A stretch of DNA of 24,847 nt from a virus: IMG/VR virus record IMGVR_UViG_3300030104_001316, positions 1 through 24,847 of that record, one strand, 5' to 3'. Below the pieces are notes generated by a model. The model saw only the letters and a list, made by a program, of their open reading frames with translations, had not been told where the DNA came from and searched no databases. The translations under genes and the position numbers were made by a program. This document shows, piece after piece, positions 7,002-23,318 of this stretch (positions are counted from its first letter, which is position 1; every line of letters starts with the position of its first letter).

Positions 7002-10000
7002 ATGAACGGACAGAAAAAATATAGTATAGATGAAATAGATAAAATGTATGGGTATGATCAAAATATATCTACATACGATACTACTCAACCAATTCAACAA
7101 ACTTACGACAGACAAGAATCAATAAAAATAAGAGAAAAACAAATTATGGATTTCTTGCCTGACTTTGTAAAAGATGCCTACAATAAATCTATAACAGGTT
7201 TAAGTGACCAGTTACTTAGTGGAGAAAAAAGATTTGATTTAGGTAGATACGACCCTAGTGTACTAGAAGACTTAGGTAGTACAATTACCAGCTTTTTTAT
7301 GCCTGCAGACCTTCTTACTTTTATAGGAAGTTCTACTGCCACACTTGGTGTTGGTGGTTTTGCTGCTAAAGCTGGAGCTAAAACAGCTCTTAATAGGGCA
7401 ATAAAGCTAGGTTCTAGAAAATTAATTCAAAGTGGTGTAAAAAAAGATTTAGCAGAAAGCGTTGTAAATAGAGGAGCTAAAAAATTAGTTGAACAATCCT
7501 TAACTCAAGGCGGTGCTTTTGCTGGATATACTGGTGTAAGTACATTTTTAAGAGAAAAGATAGAGGGTGGTGATGTTGATTACTCAGATATTTTAACTAA
7601 GTCAGCTAAAGCTGGATTAGCCGCAGGAATTGGTGGAGCAGCTTTCGGAAGAGCACTTGGTAGAAAAGGTTCTTTAGGTATGGCTTATGCACAAGAAGGA
7701 ATAGCCTTTGGAACTGCAGAACCTCTTCTTGAGGGTGAAATACCAGAGCCAATGGACTATGTTAACTCATTAGGATTTGCATTAGGATTAACTGGAGGTA
7801 GAGCTGCAGCTGTAAAAGCAAACAAATATGTTAAATCATTTCTTAAAAAAGAAAAAATAGATGAGTCAACTGTTAATAGTAATTTAACTCTTGAAGATAT
7901 AAATGCTCATCAGCAAGTCGCTAAGGAGTTTGCTGGAGTTAGATGGGAAAATGAGGGAAGAGGTGGCAAGAGATGGAATAGAATTGCAGATGGAGATGGA
8001 GCTTTTTCACAAGTTAGAGTAGTTGGGAGAAGTATATCTGGAAAAGGTAAAGCTAAAAAAGATGTTTTTAAAATAATAGATGATGTAACTAAGAAACAAA
8101 AAACAGTAGATAGAGATACATTTTTTAAATCATATAAAGAAAGCAATATATCTAGACTAAGAACTGAAGCTCAAGTTAATGAATTAGGTGCCTTGCTTGG
8201 ATATACTGGAGATGCTTACGTTAAGTCTATAACTAGAAATATTGATAAAAATGTAAGTAACATATCTGATAGAATGTTAAATGACATTCATCAAAGAATG
8301 TTTAAAAATTATAATGTAAATCATTATAGAAAACAGATAGCTGAGTTCTCATCTAGTATACCAAAAAAAGATTTATTCTCTCATATATTTGGAGAAAAAA
8401 TTGCTTCTGAAATAAAGTCTGCGCATAAAGCATTTCCAGACCCAAAGGCTAGAGGTATAATTTATTCTATGAAAGAAATAGATGACGGCATTATATTGTT
8501 TCAAGAAAAATCATATCAAGATGTTAAGTGGTTAACAGATAAATATTCTAAGTTTTCTGAATCTAGAAAGAATAGGATATGGGATGAGATCAATGGCAAA
8601 GCTGAGGTAACTAGTCAAAATAAAGAGATAGTTAATTATTGGAAAAATATGTACAAAGAAAGGCTTAAGTATGCTGAGAATTCTGGTATTGAACCAGCAG
8701 GATTTATAGATGATTTTGCTCCTCATTATGCAAAAGCTGGAGTTATAGATGAAATTTTCGAATCTATAATAGATATAGAAAAAGCTTCTGGATTTTCTTT
8801 TGCTGAAAATACTGTAAATGCAGCTGAAAGCAATAGGATAGGTAATATCATTAAAGATAGAATTATAAATAATCAAAACAGAAGACAATTTGCTGTAGCT
8901 ATTGATGATATAATTAGACAGTATAAGAAAAAAGGAATTGTTAAGGATTATACTGACGCTTTTTTAATGCTTAGAAATGATATAAGACCTACTAAAGTAA
9001 ATAGGCATGGAAGTATAGAGAATAAAAGAGAGTTTGATTTTCCAGAAGAGTTACTAGAGAGAGACCTTGTAAAGGTTACTGCTGTATATGATTTAAATTT
9101 ACCAAGGAGAGCTGAGACCGCTAAGGTTTGGGGAAAAAATAATGAGGCTGTAGATAAAATAATTTCTACCATTAAAGACCCTAGGCAAGCAAATAGAATA
9201 AGAACATTAGTAGATAGAATGACTGGTGTTAGTGAATTTCAACCAAATAATAGCCTAGGTAGAAACTATAAAAAATTTGCTGACGCAGTTATGGGATTTG
9301 AAACTACAACTAAGATTGCTGGTGGTAGCGCAACTTTAGCAAACGTATTTCAAGGTATGTATTCTATATTGCCTGCGGTTGGATATTGGAATAGCACAAA
9401 GGGATTAGCTTCATTACTAAACAAAGAGTTTAGAGATTCCTTACCAACTATGCATAAAGAAGTTATATCTGAAATACTTGGAGAGGCTACATCAACTTCA
9501 TTTTTTAGAAAAATGGCAGAGAAATCAGCAAAGTGGTCTGGATTTACTTTTATAAATAAATTTAATAATTTATGGGCATCCTCTACTGCTTATCATGCGA
9601 TACAAGATTTTACTAAAATTATAGATACAAATCCAAATAGCATAACTGGTAGAAGAGCAAAAGCTAGAATGAAAAATTTATTTGAAATAGATTATAAATC
9701 TGGAACTGGTTTAAGTGAGGATAAATTAGCTTTAGCAGTATCTAAATTTGCAAAGAAAACGCAGCTTCATGTTGATTTGCTAAACGAACCAATAGCATTT
9801 TCCAATCCAAAGCTTAGACCATTTATAATGTTTAAGCGATTTGCTTTTAAACAGCCAGCATTGCTAACAAAAAATATTAAAGATGAATTATTTTTAAGAG
9901 ATGAAAAGGGAAAATATATAGGTAGCCCTATGATCTTATTTAGAGTTGCTACTGGAGGAATGGTTGCAGCTTCTGCATATCAATACGCAAAAGGAAATTT

Positions 10001-10586
10001 AACTGCACTGTTGTCAGGTAAAAAATATGAGCCAAAAGAAGATGAGGGTATGAAAAATTTTATAGAAAATATGGCATCTGTTGGTTCTTTTGGTATGTTA
10101 ACAGATTTTATAGCAGCAGAAAATTTATCTAGACAAATAGCATTTACCATTTCACCTCCTTTTGTTGGTGATATAGATAGAGCTATAGATTCGTTTTCAG
10201 AGTTAACCAGAAGTGTAGATACATTTGGTTTTAATTCTATTAGTGTTAGGAGGGCAGCTTATAAAGCGTCTCCGATACTAGGAACTAAAGCAAAACATTT
10301 ATCAAGAAGGTTTATTGCTACAGAAGGTCAAAAGAGGAGCGCTCAGTCTTCAGCTAAGGGAAGAAGGAGAAAAGAGGTTCATGAATTATTGATAGCTGGA
10401 AAAAGTAGCTTGGCTATTAAAAAAGTTAAAGCTTGGAACTCAGCTAACCCAACCAATCCTCTTACTTTTGATGATATAAGTTATAAAAGTATTTATTTAT
10501 CTGTTACTAAAAAGAACATGAGAGTAAAAACAGAAGAGATGACACCAGCTCAATATAGAGCTTATCAAGAATACATGAGGGGTTAA
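7002..10586 (+). CDS. Very large internal virion/ejection protein (T7 gp16-like role)
   Basis: A 1194-aa protein, the largest in the window. Residues about 90-125 hold a hydrophobic, glycine-rich stretch (FMPADLLTFIGSSTATLGVG), and glycine-rich segments near 190-280 could insert into membrane. The middle is long, helical and lysine-rich. A further hydrophobic zone near 1000 (FRVATGGMVAASAYQYAKG) follows the motif MFKRFAFKQPALL. I see no lytic-transglycosylase or zinc-peptidase motif, unlike some gp16 proteins. The size, helical make-up and last place in the ejection series support a protein that helps deliver DNA through the envelope. The start follows GAGAG ten bases after the previous stop. 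Confidence 0.68.
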   Translation: MNGQKKYSIDEIDKMYGYDQNISTYDTTQPIQQTYDRQESIKIREKQIMDFLPDFVKDAYNKSITGLSDQLLSGEKRFDLGRYDPSVLEDLGSTITSFFMPADLLTFIGSSTATLGVGGFAAKAGAKTALNRAIKLGSRKLIQSGVKKDLAESVVNRGAKKLVEQSLTQGGAFAGYTGVSTFLREKIEGGDVDYSDILTKSAKAGLAAGIGGAAFGRALGRKGSLGMAYAQEGIAFGTAEPLLEGEIPEPMDYVNSLGFALGLTGGRAAAVKANKYVKSFLKKEKIDESTVNSNLTLEDINAHQQVAKEFAGVRWENEGRGGKRWNRIADGDGAFSQVRVVGRSISGKGKAKKDVFKIIDDVTKKQKTVDRDTFFKSYKESNISRLRTEAQVNELGALLGYTGDAYVKSITRNIDKNVSNISDRMLNDIHQRMFKNYNVNHYRKQIAEFSSSIPKKDLFSHIFGEKIASEIKSAHKAFPDPKARGIIYSMKEIDDGIILFQEKSYQDVKWLTDKYSKFSESRKNRIWDEINGKAEVTSQNKEIVNYWKNMYKERLKYAENSGIEPAGFIDDFAPHYAKAGVIDEIFESIIDIEKASGFSFAENTVNAAESNRIGNIIKDRIINNQNRRQFAVAIDDIIRQYKKKGIVKDYTDAFLMLRNDIRPTKVNRHGSIENKREFDFPEELLERDLVKVTAVYDLNLPRRAETAKVWGKNNEAVDKIISTIKDPRQANRIRTLVDRMTGVSEFQPNNSLGRNYKKFADAVMGFETTTKIAGGSATLANVFQGMYSILPAVGYWNSTKGLASLLNKEFRDSLPTMHKEVISEILGEATSTSFFRKMAEKSAKWSGFTFINKFNNLWASSTAYHAIQDFTKIIDTNPNSITGRRAKARMKNLFEIDYKSGTGLSEDKLALAVSKFAKKTQLHVDLLNEPIAFSNPKLRPFIMFKRFAFKQPALLTKNIKDELFLRDEKGKYIGSPMILFRVATGGMVAASAYQYAKGNLTALLSGKKYEPKEDEGMKNFIENMASVGSFGMLTDFIAAENLSRQIAFTISPPFVGDIDRAIDSFSELTRSVDTFGFNSISVRRAAYKASPILGTKAKHLSRRFIATEGQKRSAQSSAKGRRRKEVHELLIAGKSSLAIKKVKAWNSANPTNPLTFDDISYKSIYLSVTKKNMRVKTEEMTPAQYRAYQEYMRG

Positions 10587-13805: not shown

Positions 13806-14195
13806 TTAAGCCTCATCAATTCTTGGTGGTAGTCTATCTAAAGATTTAAACTCATAATCTTGTCTTGATTTTTTATTAACACTAGAGTTAAATACCATAG
13901 ATGCTAGATAAGGAAGTCCCTTACCAGAGATAGCATACTTTTTTTCTATATAATTATTCATAGATATCACTGCCATCTCGTCATCGCAATCATTAACTGA
14001 AGTTAGGAATCCTAATATCTCTCTATCAGATAATGGTTTTGTTCTTACGCTATTTATTTTCCAGATTATGTGGTCTAAAAGCTTTCCATATTCTACGCTA
14101 TGTGAAAGTCTCATTGACTTAATTTGTTTTTCTAGGTTCTTACCCTTATATACAGAGCCACAAGTAGGACATCTGTCTTTCTTAGATACAGGCAT
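13806..14195 (-). CDS. Small helical protein with CxxC, next to helicase
   Basis: A 129-aa protein taken from the ATG at 14195, which overlaps the previous stop (TGATG) and follows GGGAG at five bases. An upstream TTG at 14210 would add five residues and is less likely. The N-terminus has one CPTCG pair followed by a charged helix; the C-terminal part (DREILGFLTSVNDC, YLASMVFNSSV) is helical. It abuts dnaB, as helicase loaders or initiator accessory proteins often do. I see no Walker motif, so a DnaC-type ATPase is excluded. A loader of another type is possible but unproven. Confidence 0.75.
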   Translation of the reverse strand: MPVSKKDRCPTCGSVYKGKNLEKQIKSMRLSHSVEYGKLLDHIIWKINSVRTKPLSDREILGFLTSVNDCDDEMAVISMNNYIEKKYAISGKGLPYLASMVFNSSVNKKSRQDYEFKSLDRLPPRIDEA

Positions 14196-14629
14196 CAACA
14201 CTCCCTGCAATTTAAATATTCTAATGGAATGTTTTTATAGGTATCTACATCTAAATAATCTAATATTACATTTGCTCTGTCTTTAAATATTTGAAAAGGT
14301 TTCTTACAATTCTCACATCTATAAGGAAGTGAAGATATCTTTCCGTAGGAACCTCTCACCGATCTTACTATATTACCTTTTATTTTTAAAGATATCCTAT
14401 CTTTAATTAATGAATCAAAATCAAACCATTCATCGTCAAAGTAATTAAGCATTGTACTTATATTAGCATAAGACTTATCTGAAAAATAAGTCTGAGAACT
14501 TGTATCTATCCTTGCGTCTGACTTATCTGTCTTGCTACCTAATATTAATAATCCTTTTCTAACTCTATCTCTTGTCGATGCATTTCTCAAATCATTCTTT
14601 ATTTTTAATTCTGTTGAAGTGCTCACCAC
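14195..14629 (-). CDS. Zinc-ribbon protein, paralogue of next upstream gene
   Basis: I place the start at GTG 14629, five bases after AAAGGAG, giving 144 aa; an ATG at 14677 without a ribosome site would give 160 aa. The C-terminal half carries MLNYFDDEWFDFDS, then YRCENCKKPF and a final NIPLEYLNCREC. The four cysteines (C121, C124, C157, C160 in the longer numbering) form one zinc site that closes at the last residue. The same layout occurs in the gene immediately upstream (14652-15068), so the two are tandem paralogues. Function is unknown; position among replication genes suggests DNA or protein binding. Confidence 0.75.
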   Translation of the reverse strand: MVSTSTELKIKNDLRNASTRDRVRKGLLILGSKTDKSDARIDTSSQTYFSDKSYANISTMLNYFDDEWFDFDSLIKDRISLKIKGNIVRSVRGSYGKISSLPYRCENCKKPFQIFKDRANVILDYLDVDTYKNIPLEYLNCREC

Positions 14630-14651
14630 ACCAACTCCTTTCTTTATTGTT

Positions 14652-15068
14652 TTAACATTCTGGACAGGTCTCTTCATTTAATGGAATATTTTTAAATAAA
14701 TCCTGCTCTAAATAATAGTGACCTCCTTCTTTGGATACCTTGTAATTAACCCAGCCTCTCTCACAGAGGTTGCATCTTACAGGCTCATAAGAAACTTTGT
14801 TTTTCTCTCTCGTTCTTCCTTGGTTTTGCCTCTTATCTGAGTCTAAATCAAACCACTCCTCATCAAAATAATGAATCATAGTTTCTAAGACAGCATAGTC
14901 TTTTCTTCTATGCTCGTTATGAGCCTTAGAATTTTTAGTTCTACCTATGTCTGAACTAGGAGAAGCTTTTCCCTCTCTAACCAATCTTCGTATTTCTGGA
15001 TTACGTAAACCTCCCCTCGGTCTTCCTTCACTATCTGTATGTCCACTTCCTCGCTGGGTTTTAGCCAT
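14652..15068 (-). CDS. Zinc-ribbon protein, tandem paralogue
   Basis: A 138-aa protein with a strong AAGAGGA site seven bases ahead of the ATG. Shared blocks with the downstream neighbour are MIHYFDEEWFDLDS (64-77), VRCNLCERGW (97-106) and LFKNIPLNEETCPEC at the extreme C-terminus, giving zinc ligands C99, C102, C135 and C138. The N-terminal 60 residues are basic and low in hydrophobics, and lack an obvious match in the paralogue. Residues 1-41 are encoded in a 124-base overlap with the resolvase-like gene in another frame. Unknown function. Confidence 0.77.
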   Translation of the reverse strand: MAKTQRGSGHTDSEGRPRGGLRNPEIRRLVREGKASPSSDIGRTKNSKAHNEHRRKDYAVLETMIHYFDEEWFDLDSDKRQNQGRTREKNKVSYEPVRCNLCERGWVNYKVSKEGGHYYLEQDLFKNIPLNEETCPEC

Positions 15069-19021: not shown

Positions 19022-19738
19022 TTACCTTTCCTCTCTGATAATTTTATAATTATTATCTGAATTAAAAACAGACATAATAGATATTCTAAAAGACGCTATC
19101 TCATCTGGAGTTCCATACAAGGTTCCATCTTCTCCCTCTAGCAACTTGTAAGTATGAACACTATATATCTTTCTATCACCGATTGTTTTATCAACAGAAA
19201 TACCTATATCATATCCATCTAGACAATCCCAATATATATCATCTGTCTCTAACTCTCCAGACCAACTTTCTACAGTAGCTTTTAGGTAGTCAATCAACTC
19301 ACTTTTATTATATCTGTAATCGTGAGGACTAAGTTTCTGTACTTTTCTGATATTATTTAACATATCCCTTCTCTCTATCTGCTTCTTCTTAAACTTAGAA
19401 TAATTTTTAGAATATATTATACAAAAAGTATCCTTATCCCAATCTATATTATAATCCTCTCTCAAGTCTTTTAATTGACAGCCATAATCATTATTATATC
19501 CTTCTATTATAGAGGTTGGTATTAACTGTAAAACAGCTTGTAATACGTCGTCTAAATTCTTATCGACACTACTATCTCCATTCTCCATATTAGAGAGTAA
19601 CTCATCAGCTAAATCTAATTTCTCAGCTATATTATTTCTCTCGTTGTTATACATCCACTCTATAAACTTATCTGCTCTTATGTAATAAGTTTTCTTCTTA
19701 CTCTCAGTCTCTACATTTCCGTGGTATACATTTCCCAT
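19022..19738 (-). CDS. Hypothetical 238-aa protein of the amidoligase gene run
   Basis: A 238-aa protein starting behind GGAGG, with its ATG overlapping the previous stop (TAATG). It is a mix of helices (KFIEWMYNNERNNIAEKLDL) and a tyrosine-rich, probably beta C-terminal half (DIYWDCLDGYDIGISVDKT). No catalytic motif, signal or membrane segment is visible. Tight coupling to the 128-aa gene and closeness to the amidoligase suggest a shared process. Function unknown. Confidence 0.75.
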   Translation of the reverse strand: MGNVYHGNVETESKKKTYYIRADKFIEWMYNNERNNIAEKLDLADELLSNMENGDSSVDKNLDDVLQAVLQLIPTSIIEGYNNDYGCQLKDLREDYNIDWDKDTFCIIYSKNYSKFKKKQIERRDMLNNIRKVQKLSPHDYRYNKSELIDYLKATVESWSGELETDDIYWDCLDGYDIGISVDKTIGDRKIYSVHTYKLLEGEDGTLYGTPDEIASFRISIMSVFNSDNNYKIIREER

Positions 19739-20124
19739 TATTCTTCCTCCATTACTATTGTTTTAAATTGCCTATCTACCTCTGGCTCTTTATTCTCTAT
19801 ACCTATCATTCTCTCTATAAACACAAGCTCTATATCATCAGTCTTATCCTTGAATACCTCTTTAGCTTTTTCATATACATCTGTCAATTCCAAGCCAGAG
19901 TAAACAGATTCTATCTTCTCTGTATCGATCTCAGATGTGTAAAGCTCGTACCATATATCTGTCTCTGGAACATTGAGCTGCATTTCTATTTCTCTATCCA
20001 TATTATCTATGAATATTATCCTATGTCTAAAGTTATTATACTTTATATTTACTTTCTTTATCTCGCTGATGCCATACATATCAAGTATCTTATGTATAGC
20101 AGAGTTCATATTCTTTGTGTCCAT
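19738..20124 (-). CDS. Hypothetical 128-aa acidic protein downstream of amidoligase
   Basis: A 128-aa acidic protein with AGGAGAG ahead of its ATG, eight bases after the amidoligase stop. Pattern: an N-terminal helix, then strands (VNIKYNNFRHRIIFID and EIEMQLNVPETDIWYELY), then an acidic C-terminus ending EEE. No cysteine and no recognised motif. It could be a small substrate, carrier or regulator of the amidoligase module, which is only a guess from adjacency. Confidence 0.72.
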   Translation of the reverse strand: MDTKNMNSAIHKILDMYGISEIKKVNIKYNNFRHRIIFIDNMDREIEMQLNVPETDIWYELYTSEIDTEKIESVYSGLELTDVYEKAKEVFKDKTDDIELVFIERMIGIENKEPEVDRQFKTIVMEEE

Positions 20125-20132
20125 ATTCTCTC

Positions 20133-21437
20133 CTATATGTTTATTCCTATTTCTGTATATTCTCCAACTATTTCAGGGTTATAGAATTTTAATATTCTTT
20201 TCACTATGTAGGCTCTTAAGTCTGTGTCTACTTCTAATAGGTGGAAGAATTCATCTACAGCTAATGGAGTCATTGAAGTTTTAGATTTCTCTATATATTG
20301 ACTTAGTGCATAGGTCTTTTTGTAATCGTTGAAGGTAGTTATATTACCTCTGTCTAGTCTAGCTAGTTTTATTCCTGCTTCAACTATTCTCTGACATATC
20401 TCTATCCAATTTATAATCTTATCTGCATCTAGTGTTCCAGAGTGATGTCTAAACTCTATAGAGCCATGTATTATCCTAGAGTGCATATTGACTCCACAAT
20501 ATCTAGAATCATTATACTTCTCGTAAGAGGGGTAAGTATCGAACGCTTGATACCAAGTGTCTATGAAATCTTGGTCATCACAAATATCCATTATGTGTCC
20601 CATAGTCATTGGTATTCTTTTACACCATCTACTATTTCTCCTAGAGTCTGGTAGCATCTTATATATTATCTGTTCACTTAGCTTTGAGACTGCTAATATA
20701 TATTTAATCTCTCTCCACTTTAAGTCTCTAGCGTCTATGTGTATATGCATACCACAACTTCTATTGACTGACCACCCTATTCGTTTTAAATCTGTAGTGA
20801 TATTATCAATAGATTGGTATAGCTCATCTCCAGATAAACCACCTCTAGTTATAAATTCTCTGCCAACACCATCTCCAGAATCTATACTTCCATCATGAAC
20901 TACTCTCCAGTTGTTCCTAAACTCCCAGTTACTTTCGTAGTAGCCGTATTCCATAGCTTCATAGTCATCATTCACAGCTTCTAGTTCTAAGCCTACTGCT
21001 CTGCTAAACTTATTTCTATTAAAGCATTTAGACTCGTGTAAGTCTACATTACCATAACTATCTAAGTCTACATCTTCTCCCTCTCCAGGATAGCAATCCT
21101 CACAGTAGTATTCTTGGTGTGTCTCAGACCATATAGCGTAGTCTCTATTGACAGTATTATCACAACTCTCACAATATGTGAATATCTCGTTATAACAATC
21201 ATCACAATATGTCTCTCCATTGGTAGTGTATACGTCATCAATGGGGTAATCATCGCAACAAGACTGGCATTCGTAATGTCTCTCGCTGTAGCAATCTTCA
21301 CAATAATCTTCTCCATGAAAGCCACAAAGACGCTCACTCTCAGAGATGATTCCTCGACAACCTTCACACCTTATATTCTCTTCTTCTCTAGTTTGATTTT
21401 TCTCTTGATATGTATCATTATTATTATCTGTAGGCAT
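20133..21437 (-). CDS. Amidoligase (COOH-NH2 ligase) with three N-terminal zinc modules
   Basis: A 434-aa protein, start behind AGGAG. Residues 24-115 carry six CxxC pairs (C24/27, 46/49, 57/60, 78/81, 89/92, 112/115), three LIM-like zinc modules with the repeating end YCEDCY. From about 147 the catalytic domain matches Amidoligase_2: GLELEAV (149-155), HDGSI (181-185), GREFITRGGLSGDEL (192-206), SCGMHIHIDARDL (227-239) and SIEFRHHSGTLDADKI (326-341). These are the acidic, His and Arg residues of a glutamine-synthetase-like ATP-binding ligase. The family makes amide or peptide bonds between a carboxyl group and an amine. An amidotransferase of class II lies two genes upstream. The substrate is unknown; zinc modules may select a protein or nucleic acid. 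Confidence 0.9.
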   Translation of the reverse strand: MPTDNNNDTYQEKNQTREEENIRCEGCRGIISESERLCGFHGEDYCEDCYSERHYECQSCCDDYPIDDVYTTNGETYCDDCYNEIFTYCESCDNTVNRDYAIWSETHQEYYCEDCYPGEGEDVDLDSYGNVDLHESKCFNRNKFSRAVGLELEAVNDDYEAMEYGYYESNWEFRNNWRVVHDGSIDSGDGVGREFITRGGLSGDELYQSIDNITTDLKRIGWSVNRSCGMHIHIDARDLKWREIKYILAVSKLSEQIIYKMLPDSRRNSRWCKRIPMTMGHIMDICDDQDFIDTWYQAFDTYPSYEKYNDSRYCGVNMHSRIIHGSIEFRHHSGTLDADKIINWIEICQRIVEAGIKLARLDRGNITTFNDYKKTYALSQYIEKSKTSMTPLAVDEFFHLLEVDTDLRAYIVKRILKFYNPEIVGEYTEIGINI

Positions 21438-21445
21438 ATATACTC

Positions 21446-21772
21446 CTATGATATAGCATAATGACTAGCAGAGATTAAGATAAACACAGAGTGTGATATC
21501 TCTCTTAACCAACCAATACGTTTTAGTGTACGATACATATTCTCTGGAGATAGGTCATCTACGATCTCGCCATTGACCTCAGAGATTCTATCTGCTAAGT
21601 GAGACATATACTCCTCGATATTCTCAGATTCTACGAATGGATTTTTCTTAGCTCTATTATAGAGCATCTCCATTACATATCTCTTAGACTTTATCTTTAT
21701 AGGAGAATCTATCCCTACAATAACAGCCATTCTCTTTTTCTTTTTATATCCACTTTTTGTAAGCAGAGCCAT
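21446..21772 (-). CDS. Hypothetical 108-aa protein between amidotransferase and amidoligase
   Basis: A 108-aa protein with GGAGG ahead of the ATG; its start lies inside the 3' end of the amidotransferase gene (29-base overlap). Basic start (KSGYKKKKRMAVIVGIDSP), then a helical body (EMLYNRAKKNPF, YMSHLADRISE) and LKRIGWLREISHSVFI. The placement makes it a likely co-translated part of the amidotransferase-amidoligase run. No zinc, ATP or catalytic motif; no family recognised. Confidence 0.72.
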   Translation of the reverse strand: MALLTKSGYKKKKRMAVIVGIDSPIKIKSKRYVMEMLYNRAKKNPFVESENIEEYMSHLADRISEVNGEIVDDLSPENMYRTLKRIGWLREISHSVFILISASHYAIS

Positions 21773-22853
21773 AAGAACCTCCCTCTATCTGAAGTTGCTC
21801 ATCTATCTTTACGTCTCCGTGGCAACTCTCGCAGTAATAGTAATCACCCTCTCGCCTTGCTATGTCTGCATAGTCTCCACAGATACAACAGTCTAAGCCT
21901 ACATCTTTAATCTTACTATCTAGATTAGTTCTATCTACTTCACAATCTAGACAAGAGTAGTCTTCTCCATATTTGATTAAGTCTATATACTCTGTCTTTT
22001 TATTACAATATATACAAATAGGTCTCTCAGAATAATCTACAAACTCTGTACTATTAAAATAGTCGTAAGAATTGTAGCCATAGTAATTCTTGAGAGGAGT
22101 ATAGTTGTACTCTAATGTATTAGACTCTATCTTCTCTAACTTAGCGTTGGTGCCTGTATCAGAGAACTTATTTACATCATATATATAATGTGTATCTATC
22201 GTAACATCATATATATAAGCCTTGACTCCATATTTAGATAGAGCCTTCTTGAGATGTTCTTTTGTAGAGGCGTAGAATAATACCTTAGCTTTTTTCCAAT
22301 AGGCAACTGCTAAGTCTCTACCTCCCTCATGTAATAGATTAAGTTCAGTCTTAGAATTTTTTATCCAAGACAGTGCATAATCTCCATATATCTCATCTAG
22401 AGCTTTCTGTAAACTCTCGTTATCATTTATAAAATGAAACAAGTATTGAGAGTCTACCTCATATAACTCTTTATGCTTTTCGTCTATGTCCTCGTGATTG
22501 TATATCATACCATTATGAGCACCAATCGTATTACCCACTACAAATGGGTGAGCATTACGAGCTGTAATGGCTCCCTCTGTAGCGTGTCTCGTATGGAGCA
22601 TACATATACTAGTATCATATCTATATTCATTAGATATCTTGTTATACTCTGGTGAGTCTACAAATACATCAGAACTCTGTAGAGTCTTGTATATGATAGG
22701 CTCATCTTTTTCTGAGATAACTGATACTCCCGTAGAGTGCTTGCCTCTATCGGCAATACCTCTTAGTAGAGACTTAGATATCTTACGAACTTTTCTCATC
22801 TGGTGCCTGTTTTGCTCGTACGGCTTTTTGGCGAAACCAGCTAGTCCACACAT
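21744..22853 (-). CDS. Class II glutamine amidotransferase with C-terminal zinc ribbons
   Basis: A 369-aa protein, start behind AAAGGAG. It begins MCGLAGF, placing the catalytic Cys at residue 2, as in Ntn amidotransferases of the GlmS/PurF/AsnB type. ADRGKHSTG (35-42), HTRHATEGA (87-95), NAHPF, AHNGMIYN (112-119), EVDSQ (132-136) and GDYALSW (157-163) are all intact. After residue 230 no synthetase or sugar-isomerase domain follows; instead come a tyrosine-rich linker and two zinc ribbons (C280/283 with C301/304, and C322-C325 with C341/344). It should release ammonia from glutamine for an acceptor enzyme. The amidoligase two genes downstream is the natural candidate, which is inference. Confidence 0.9.
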   Translation of the reverse strand: MCGLAGFAKKPYEQNRHQMRKVRKISKSLLRGIADRGKHSTGVSVISEKDEPIIYKTLQSSDVFVDSPEYNKISNEYRYDTSICMLHTRHATEGAITARNAHPFVVGNTIGAHNGMIYNHEDIDEKHKELYEVDSQYLFHFINDNESLQKALDEIYGDYALSWIKNSKTELNLLHEGGRDLAVAYWKKAKVLFYASTKEHLKKALSKYGVKAYIYDVTIDTHYIYDVNKFSDTGTNAKLEKIESNTLEYNYTPLKNYYGYNSYDYFNSTEFVDYSERPICIYCNKKTEYIDLIKYGEDYSCLDCEVDRTNLDSKIKDVGLDCCICGDYADIARREGDYYYCESCHGDVKIDEQLQIEGGSYGSAYKKWI

Positions 22854-22901: not shown

Positions 22902-23318
22902 CTATATCCAGTAATACTCTAGGTTATCACGTTCTCTCCAACCATACTGTGAGTAGAACTCTTTGTCTTTTCTCAGTAGATTGCTTCTGTGAGAAGCATG
23001 AAATCTCTCGTTACCTAACCAATGTGGCATCTCTACATCTTCTGAGACTCCTATCATTTCCATAGTATTATTATAACCTCTCAGAATCCACTCCTCGATC
23101 ATCTTGTTCTTGTAGAGAAGTAAGGCTTCCTCGTAGCCACGCCACATAGTCACGGCAGGGTGATTTAGCCACCCTCTATAGCTTCTACCTGTCTTTGTAG
23201 GTACTCCAGATAGAGCGTTAAATATTTGTAGAGCTTCGACTCTCTGTTTACCTAGTCTCTTATAATCTAAGACTTGAGCAGAGAGAGTAAAATCCTCGTA
23301 GGGTAAAAATGTCTGCAT
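22902..23318 (-). CDS. MSMEG_6728-like / pyrimidine-dimer DNA glycosylase-like protein
   Basis: A 138-aa protein with the signature of a family seen in phages and bacteria: MQTFLPYEDFTLSAQVLD, then YKRLGKQRVEALQI (19-32), NHPAVTMWRGYEEALLLY (52-69), and at the end ERFHASHRSNLLRKDKEFY followed by GW (126-127). The HASHRSNLLRKD...FY...W part resembles the C-terminus of T4 endonuclease V (DenV, HEASIAISQARLDE...WYKYYGK). T4 DenV itself incises DNA at UV dimers. Whether this branch has glycosylase activity is not shown. It is close-packed with the next membrane-protein gene (stop and start adjoin). Confidence 0.85.
   Translation of the reverse strand: MQTFLPYEDFTLSAQVLDYKRLGKQRVEALQIFNALSGVPTKTGRSYRGWLNHPAVTMWRGYEEALLLYKNKMIEEWILRGYNNTMEMIGVSEDVEMPHWLGNERFHASHRSNLLRKDKEFYSQYGWRERDNLEYYWI

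What the first reader, a model, noticed from the sequence alone, without database searches (positions are those of the whole stretch)
20133..22853. Amidoligase plus class II amidotransferase module, both fused to zinc ribbons
Seen: a complete Ntn amidotransferase (Cys2, HTRHA, AHNG motifs) without any synthetase domain, and two genes downstream a complete amidoligase; the first has two C-terminal zinc ribbons, the second three N-terminal zinc modules. Known: amidoligases join carboxyl and amine groups with ATP, and class II amidotransferases release ammonia from glutamine. Inference: together they may amidate or ligate a substrate brought in by the zinc parts, such as a host protein, a small metabolite or a modified base. 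I recall amidoligases linked with such amidotransferases in published comparative-genomics work, but the double zinc fusion and the three unknown genes around it look worth study.
Basis: partly seen in the sequence, partly recalled or inferred. Interest (0 to 1): 0.88.

Follow-up and report, generated by a model that had tools for sequence, protein, structure and literature searches.

The report
Phage amidoligase cassette with hidden partner
An uncultured phage carries a glutamine-splitting enzyme and an amide-bond-forming enzyme, both with zinc-binding arms, and a small unnamed protein always encoded between them; that small protein turns out to belong to a family that travels with amide-forming enzymes in many phages, so it is probably a missing working part of them.

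Summary
On the minus strand lie a class II glutamine amidotransferase with two C-terminal zinc ribbons, a 108-aa gene, and an Amidoligase_2 enzyme with three N-terminal zinc modules. Catalytic residues are invariant in all non-redundant relatives (64 amidotransferases, 61 amidoligases).

The pairing is known (phiEco32/LUZ24-type phage cassettes). This is a distinct subtype: [second amidoligase]-amidotransferase-108aa-amidoligase, zinc-armed enzymes, no ATP-grasp, no PF14395 ligase.

It sits between the two enzymes in 53 of 54 loci found by searching for it alone (the 54th is cut by a contig end). By profile comparison it is a distant homologue of an unannotated ~80-aa protein encoded directly downstream of stand-alone phage amidoligases, often followed by a gamma-glutamylcyclotransferase. 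That cyclotransferase also occurs in 34 of 39 records with this cassette; this window stops before reaching it. The 238-aa gene is not part of the module; the 128-aa gene is scattered.

Best reading: a multi-subunit amide-ligation complex that modifies a host component, the zinc arms and small subunit providing docking and targeting. Chemistry and target remain inferred. New variant of a known kind.

The parts
21744..22853 (-). Class II (Ntn) glutamine amidotransferase, 369 aa; glutaminase domain about residues 1-230, no synthetase domain
   Evidence: PF13522 7.5e-13; PHROG 4736 2.8e-36; E. coli GlmS glutaminase 1xff 2.6e-15 by profile; Cys2, Arg89, Asn114, Gly115, Asp134 invariant in 64/64
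21822..22016 (-). Two C-terminal zinc ribbons of the amidotransferase (CxxC at residues 280/301 and 322/341)
   Evidence: at least two C-terminal CxxC in 62/62 amidotransferases of this cassette
21446..21772 (-). S108: 108-aa small subunit; overlaps the end of the amidotransferase gene, 8 nt before the amidoligase; beta-alpha-alpha-alpha-beta plus a C-terminal hydrophobic helix and short conserved tail
   Evidence: 54 loci by its own search, 53 complete cassettes and one cut by a contig end; homologous to ~80-aa partners of stand-alone amidoligases; model pLDDT 75.8; no convincing Pfam/PHROG/PDB match
20133..21437 (-). Amidoligase_2 enzyme, 434 aa, glutamine-synthetase/YbdK fold; catalytic domain about residues 145-362 (20352-21005)
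   Evidence: PF12224 2.3e-23; model pLDDT 85; best folds YbdK and glutamine synthetase; ExE, DGS, HxH, DxRY, ExR residues invariant in 61/61
21093..21368 (-). Three N-terminal zinc modules of the amidoligase (residues 24-49, 57-81, 89-115), LIM-like
   Evidence: positions; LIM proteins in sequence-profile search (best 8e-4) and fold search (LMO2, LMO4, FHL)
22902..23318 (-). Pyr_excise/MSMEG_6728-family protein, conserved upstream neighbour of the cassette (not clearly part of the function)
   Evidence: PF03013 9.3e-24, NCBIfam MSMEG_6728_fam 2e-44; next to the cassette in phages with and without the second amidoligase; 1 of 50 other amidoligase records

Best explanation
The three genes encode one phage enzyme complex. 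The amidotransferase splits glutamine. The glutamine-synthetase-fold amidoligase uses ATP to activate a carboxyl group and makes an amide bond, either with the released ammonia or with a gamma-glutamyl/amine partner. S108 is a non-catalytic subunit of the amidoligase, and the LIM-like and ribbon zinc arms hold the two enzymes together and dock a large target, most likely a host protein or cell-wall peptide changed during infection. A gamma-glutamylcyclotransferase, encoded about 6 kb upstream on the other strand in relatives, trims or reverses gamma-glutamyl products. SHOWN here: the domains, intact active sites, fixed gene order, homology of S108 to other amidoligase partners, and gene association with the cyclotransferase. 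INFERRED: physical complex, ammonia transfer, gamma-glutamyl chemistry, docking role of the zinc arms, host target.
For: Fixed order with short overlaps in 64 non-redundant loci. Active sites invariant in both enzymes and in the second amidoligase. Searches starting from the small protein alone land next to an amidoligase: 53/54 S108 loci, the other cut by a contig end; 6/6 loci for the ~80-aa relatives, all amidoligase-partner-cyclotransferase. Profile match of S108 to ~80-aa partners: score 44.6, best of 60 column shuffles 16.2. GGACT cyclotransferase in 34/39 S108 records and 29/36 stand-alone amidoligase records, usually 0-612 nt behind the stand-alone amidoligase, against 210 of 50,697 deposited phages by tblastn. 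The cassette diverges faster than replication genes (39-46% against 67-86% identity between window and L004). Between window and sister phage the amidoligase N-terminal tail and zinc arm hold 19 amino-acid but 2 synonymous changes, against 10 and 8 in the rest (p about 0.03), as for a target-binding part.
Against: No biochemistry was found for any member. Part of the order conservation could be synteny within one group of related phages. A class II glutaminase without a synthetase domain could hydrolyse gamma-glutamyl amides (EgtC-like) instead of feeding ammonia. The selection signal rests on one pair of phages and could be a recombination tract. The cyclotransferase is not in this window, which ends before its expected place, and its baseline rate is a lower bound from BLAST.
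Confidence: 0.55

Rival explanations
1. Gamma-glutamyl attach-and-remove pair, as in ergothioneine synthesis (EgtA/EgtC): the amidoligase joins glutamate through its gamma-carboxyl to an amine, and the amidotransferase-fold protein hydrolyses that bond later instead of supplying ammonia.
For: Amidoligase fold is nearest to YbdK, a glutamate-cysteine-ligase-type enzyme; the amidotransferase also matches EgtC, TIGR03442, at 8.8e-6; a gamma-glutamylcyclotransferase accompanies the system.
Against: Closest relatives of the glutaminase domain are GlmS and PurF, ammonia donors. A cyclotransferase already present would make a second gamma-glutamyl remover redundant.
Confidence: 0.22
2. The cassette works as the published phiEco32/LUZ24-type 'peptidoglycan modification' system: the enzymes alter cell-wall peptides and block superinfection.
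For: Same three enzyme families (amidoligase, amidotransferase, cyclotransferase) and two ligases; that role is proposed for such phages (PMC5498523; PMC10580990).
Against: The two other defining enzymes are missing: PF14395 ligase in 0 of 41 records and ATP-grasp in 0 S108 loci. The role itself is a proposal without experiments in the papers read.
Confidence: 0.2
3. A nitrogen-metabolism or small-molecule pathway: the enzymes make or break amide-bonded amino-acid derivatives to support the host during infection.
For: Such a role was suggested for a chronic Planctomycetes phage with amidotransferase, amidoligase and cyclotransferase (PMC10945688).
Against: Zinc docking arms on both enzymes and their faster divergence fit a macromolecular partner better than a free metabolite.
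Confidence: 0.15

Closest known systems
phiEco32 / LUZ24 / RIO-1-type phage amidoligase cassette (Iyer et al. 2009 as cited; PMC5498523, PMC3890496)
   Same: Amidoligase_2, class II amidotransferase and gamma-glutamylcyclotransferase in one phage; two ligases; probably the same kind of chemistry
   Different: No PF14395 ligase (0/41), no ATP-grasp (0 S108 loci); zinc arms on the amidoligase, absent from all 11 named-phage amidoligases checked; S108 present; second ligase is a diverged Amidoligase_2 copy
Stand-alone phage amidoligase + ~80-aa gene + GGACT (e.g. Bacillus phage 035JT001 gp41/42/45)
   Same: Amidoligase_2, homologous small partner, cyclotransferase
   Different: No amidotransferase, no zinc arms, partner lies after and not before the ligase and lacks the hydrophobic C-terminal helix and tail. 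Porphyromonas phage018a carries the pair, but no GGACT was found in its record
GlmS/PurF glutaminase domains
   Same: Cys2 nucleophile and all tested class II glutaminase residues
   Different: No synthase domain; ends in two zinc ribbons
YbdK / glutamate-cysteine ligases / glutamine synthetase
   Same: Fold and the ExE, HxH, ExR active-site pattern
   Different: N-terminal LIM-like arm; sequence identity 10-13% to solved members
LIM domains (LMO2, LMO4, FHL)
   Same: Paired C2-C2 modules; best zinc-arm matches in profile and fold searches
   Different: 7-residue spacer between CxxC pairs and Cys in place of His; no LIM Pfam match at 0.1, so LIM-like only
Pup-PafA pupylation (from memory)
   Same: Glutamine-synthetase-fold ligase with a small partner protein
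   Different: No Pup-like GGE/GGQ end; relatives of S108 lack a conserved acceptor residue

Membership tests
Class II glutamine amidotransferase | N-terminal Cys nucleophile after Met | tested here: met
   Cys2 in 64/64
Class II glutamine amidotransferase | Arg of HTRxAT, Asn-Gly of HNG, Asp of the VDS motif | tested here: met
   invariant 64/64; Pfam above cut-off
Class II glutamine amidotransferase | Glutamine hydrolysis | not testable with these tools
   needs assay
Amidoligase_2 (glutamine-synthetase superfamily) | Profile match above curated cut-off | tested here: met
   83.8 bits against 22
Amidoligase_2 (glutamine-synthetase superfamily) | Glutamine-synthetase/YbdK fold and intact active-site residues | tested here: met
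   1r8g/1tt4 about 6e-5, GS 7e-3; 61/61
phiEco32/LUZ24-type cassette | Amidoligase_2 plus class II amidotransferase in one phage | tested here: met
phiEco32/LUZ24-type cassette | PF14395 COOH-NH2 ligase | tested here: not met
   0/41 S108 records; 3/3 control phages
phiEco32/LUZ24-type cassette | ATP-grasp ligase | tested here: not met
   0 S108 loci; found in 8 named-phage loci; loci reach only 8-10 kb each side
phiEco32/LUZ24-type cassette | Gamma-glutamylcyclotransferase (GGACT) | tested here: inconclusive
   not in this truncated record, but in the near-identical sister contig (L010 284-628) and 34/39 S108 records
Small amidoligase-partner family (named here) | Profile homology to ~80-aa partners | tested here: met
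   hhalign prob 94.8, score 44.6 against shuffle maximum 16.2
Small amidoligase-partner family (named here) | Encoded next to an amidoligase | tested here: met
LIM domain | C-x2-C-x16-23-H-x2-C-x2-C-x2-C-x16-21-C-x2-C/H/D pattern (from memory) | tested here: not met
   Cys replaces His and spacers are 7 residues; resembles LIM in fold only
Pup-like tag | Short disordered protein ending GGE/GGQ (from memory) | tested here: not met
   predicted folded; tail ends mostly [GA][IV][AST] or GV/GG

The most novel reading that the evidence does not exclude
S108 and its ~80-aa relatives are the protein substrate or carrier of phage amidoligases: a phage-encoded protein tag or carrier, charged by a glutamine-synthetase-fold ligase, fed by glutamine, and cleared by a gamma-glutamylcyclotransferase. 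In the S108 branch the conserved C-terminal tail would be the charged end.
Probability: 0.1. Interest if true: 0.9.

Novelty: new variant of a known kind. Interest (0 to 1): 0.58.

Why it matters
Phage amidoligases have been noted since 2009, but in the papers read here their substrate and accessory parts remain unknown. Showing that diverse phage amidoligases share a small, unannotated partner and a gamma-glutamylcyclotransferase gives a concrete three-part system to test, including in named phages (Bacillus phage 035JT001 gp41/gp42/gp45; Porphyromonas phage018a for the ligase-partner pair). The zinc-armed, amidotransferase-coupled form adds what looks like a target-recognition part, which could help capture the substrate. 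If the partner is essential, assays of the ligase alone would be expected to fail.

Tried and rejected
S108 as a known family: no Pfam, PHROG, NCBIfam or PDB match worth keeping; PDB fold hits all have E above 1. Best BFVD fold hit TM 0.60, E 2.3e-3, an 86-aa protein without a name in the tables, not followed.

S108 fused into the longer amidoligases of sister loci without it: not found.

Conserved S108 tail as proof of a charged C-terminus: weakened, because in the 'NIGV' branch the last codons contain the ribosome-binding site of the amidoligase gene (ATAGGAG); in the 'AIA/AIS' branch the tail is conserved with synonymous variation. The ~80-aa relatives lack the tail and show no universal Lys, Cys, Asp or Glu, so the carrier idea is kept only as the novel case.

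128- and 238-aa genes as module parts: rejected.

Pyr_excise as a module part, which would hint at base modification: it follows this phage lineage, not amidoligases (1/50 other records).

S108 in bacterial genomes: none confirmed. A genome scan with one clade of partners gave only a doubtful hit in Plebeiobacterium with no amidoligase nearby.

Small genes beside the amidotransferases of phiEco32/LUZ24-type phages as further partners: no convincing match; Arthrobacter phage Ottawa gp67 looks similar by eye but scores only E 0.39.

A transfer RNA at the window's right end: ARAGORN finds none.

Not available: complex modelling, phage hosts, full text of Iyer et al. 2009.

Full report
WHAT IS THERE. 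The window is one linear virus record. On its minus strand are, in order of transcription, a Pyr_excise-family gene (23318..22902), the amidotransferase (22853..21744), a 108-aa gene (21772..21446, called S108 here) and the amidoligase (21437..20133). S108 overlaps the amidotransferase gene and ends 8 nt before the amidoligase, so the three are probably translated together. Domain matches are above curated cut-offs. The amidotransferase is closest to GlmS and PurF glutaminase domains, has no synthetase domain and ends in two zinc ribbons. The amidoligase has three N-terminal zinc modules; its predicted structure (pLDDT 85) matches YbdK and glutamine synthetase in the catalytic part and LIM proteins (LMO2, LMO4, FHL) in the zinc part.

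IS IT A UNIT? A search of viral contigs with S108 alone gave 54 loci: 53 read amidotransferase-S108-amidoligase, and the 54th is cut at a contig end. After removing duplicates across three searches there are 64 such loci; 48 also have a second amidoligase, mostly about 450-680 aa, before the amidotransferase. The second copy and the main copy form one clade in the tree, with the main copy monophyletic (support 0.94), so the pair probably arose by duplication inside this lineage. In phages with the second copy the Pyr_excise gene is found just upstream of it in many loci; in the window's branch the same gene sits directly before the amidotransferase, so the window's branch most likely lost the second ligase or never gained it. 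PF12224 finds no second copy elsewhere in the records of that branch, apart from one 80-kb record with two whole cassettes; these records may be fragments. All tested active-site residues are invariant: 64 amidotransferases, 61 main and 45 second amidoligases. The zinc arms go with S108: 62 of 62 amidotransferases with S108 have at least two C-terminal CxxC, against 3 of 26 in loci lacking S108. Some of the order conservation is synteny inside related phages: a PD-(D/E)XK gene is shared by most of them.

WHAT IS S108? It has no convincing match in Pfam, PHROGs or the PDB, is not found in 50,697 deposited phages by tblastn and was not confirmed in 84,980 bacterial and archaeal genomes by the pattern scan. 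The lead came from weak profile hits: the best-scoring ORFs near stand-alone amidoligases were ~80-aa genes directly behind the ligase. An alignment of those genes against S108 gives an hhalign probability of 94.8 and score 44.6; sixty column-shuffled versions reached at most 16.2. The alignment was assembled partly after seeing those hits, so the later tests matter more. An iterated profile over 7,677 ORFs in 88 loci lacking S108 gave 22 hits, 21 of them beside or just behind an amidoligase and one behind an amidoligase-amidotransferase pair. A fresh contig scan with a subset of partners gave six loci, all amidoligase-partner-cyclotransferase, one of them new. Named phages with the partner include seven Porphyromonas phages, Bacillus phage 035JT001 and Geobacillus phage GR1. 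S108 differs from these relatives by a C-terminal hydrophobic helix and short tail.

THE THIRD ENZYME. Gamma-glutamylcyclotransferase (PF06094) is found in 34 of 39 records with S108 and in 29 of 36 stand-alone amidoligase records. By tblastn only 210 of 50,697 deposited phages have one, and the listed ones are largely phages of known amidoligase groups; this is a lower bound because distant members are missed. Behind stand-alone ligases it mostly follows at 0-27 nt or at about 224-272 nt, the latter leaving room for the small partner. In S108 phages it lies 4.3-7.8 kb upstream on the opposite strand. The window ends 2.0 kb upstream of its amidotransferase, so it cannot be seen here, but the near-identical sister contig has it (L010 284-628).

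HOW IT PROBABLY WORKS. Established knowledge of the families says that class II glutaminases release ammonia from glutamine, glutamine-synthetase-fold amidoligases activate a carboxyl group with ATP and join it to an amine, and GGACT enzymes cut gamma-glutamyl amides to 5-oxoproline. Put together, the likely job is ATP-driven amide formation on a host component with nitrogen or gamma-glutamyl groups from glutamine. S108-type partners accompany the ligase even where there is no amidotransferase, so S108 is best read as a ligase subunit. The zinc arms are candidates for docking and targeting. Two observations fit a target that evolves: the cassette is 39-46% identical between the window and L004 while DnaB, the PD-(D/E)XK gene and Pyr_excise are 67-86%; and between the window and its sister phage (amidotransferase 99.7%, S108 100% identical in DNA) the amidoligase tail and zinc arm differ by 19 residues with 2 synonymous changes, against 10 and 8 in the rest. 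The latter is one comparison and may be recombination.

KNOWN OR NEW? The amidoligase-amidotransferase-cyclotransferase association in phages is known and has been proposed to modify cell walls (PMC5498523, PMC10580990). Papers also report stand-alone amidoligases beside the cyclotransferase in prophages (PMC11318856, PMC11253131). New here, as far as the tools and open papers show: the small partner family and its link across stand-alone and coupled amidoligases; the zinc-armed subtype with a second Amidoligase_2 copy and without ATP-grasp (0 S108 loci) or PF14395 (0/41). Iyer et al. 2009 could not be read, so a mention of the small gene there cannot be excluded.

VERDICT. Observation confirmed, interpretation partly supported, new variant of a known kind. 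The most useful result is the S108/partner family, which turns an orphan gene into a testable subunit.

Noticed in passing
window 22902-23318 (-): Pyr_excise/MSMEG_6728-family gene directly before the cassette; 52-100% identical across S108 phages and much better conserved than the cassette, but found in only 1 of 50 other amidoligase records.
   Followed up: partly
L011 and L015 (same 80,282-base record, G002): One virus record carries two complete amidotransferase-S108-amidoligase cassettes and two cyclotransferases; it may be a joined assembly of two related phages.
   Followed up: no
window 7002-10586 (+): 1194-aa protein, weak match to a phage virion structural protein family (PHROG 684), without any tblastn match in 50,697 deposited phages: the phage lineage appears to be uncultured.
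   Followed up: partly
window 14195-14677 and 14652-15068 (-): Two adjacent, overlapping genes encode paralogous 160- and 138-aa proteins (about 30% identical) ending in CxxC motifs; also present in relatives L003-L005.
   Followed up: no
S108-amidoligase junction, e.g. L045 8270-8300: In the 'NIGV' branch the ribosome-binding site of the amidoligase gene (ATAGGAG) lies inside the last codons of S108, which constrains its last residues.
   Followed up: yes
window 19022-20133 (-): The 128- and 238-aa genes behind the amidoligase are poorly conserved; together with the amidoligase they make up a stretch where the sister phage differs most.
   Followed up: partly
L103 1674-9173: A viral contig with a row of four amidoligase genes, an amidotransferase and a fifth amidoligase: an expanded array not examined further.
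   Followed up: no
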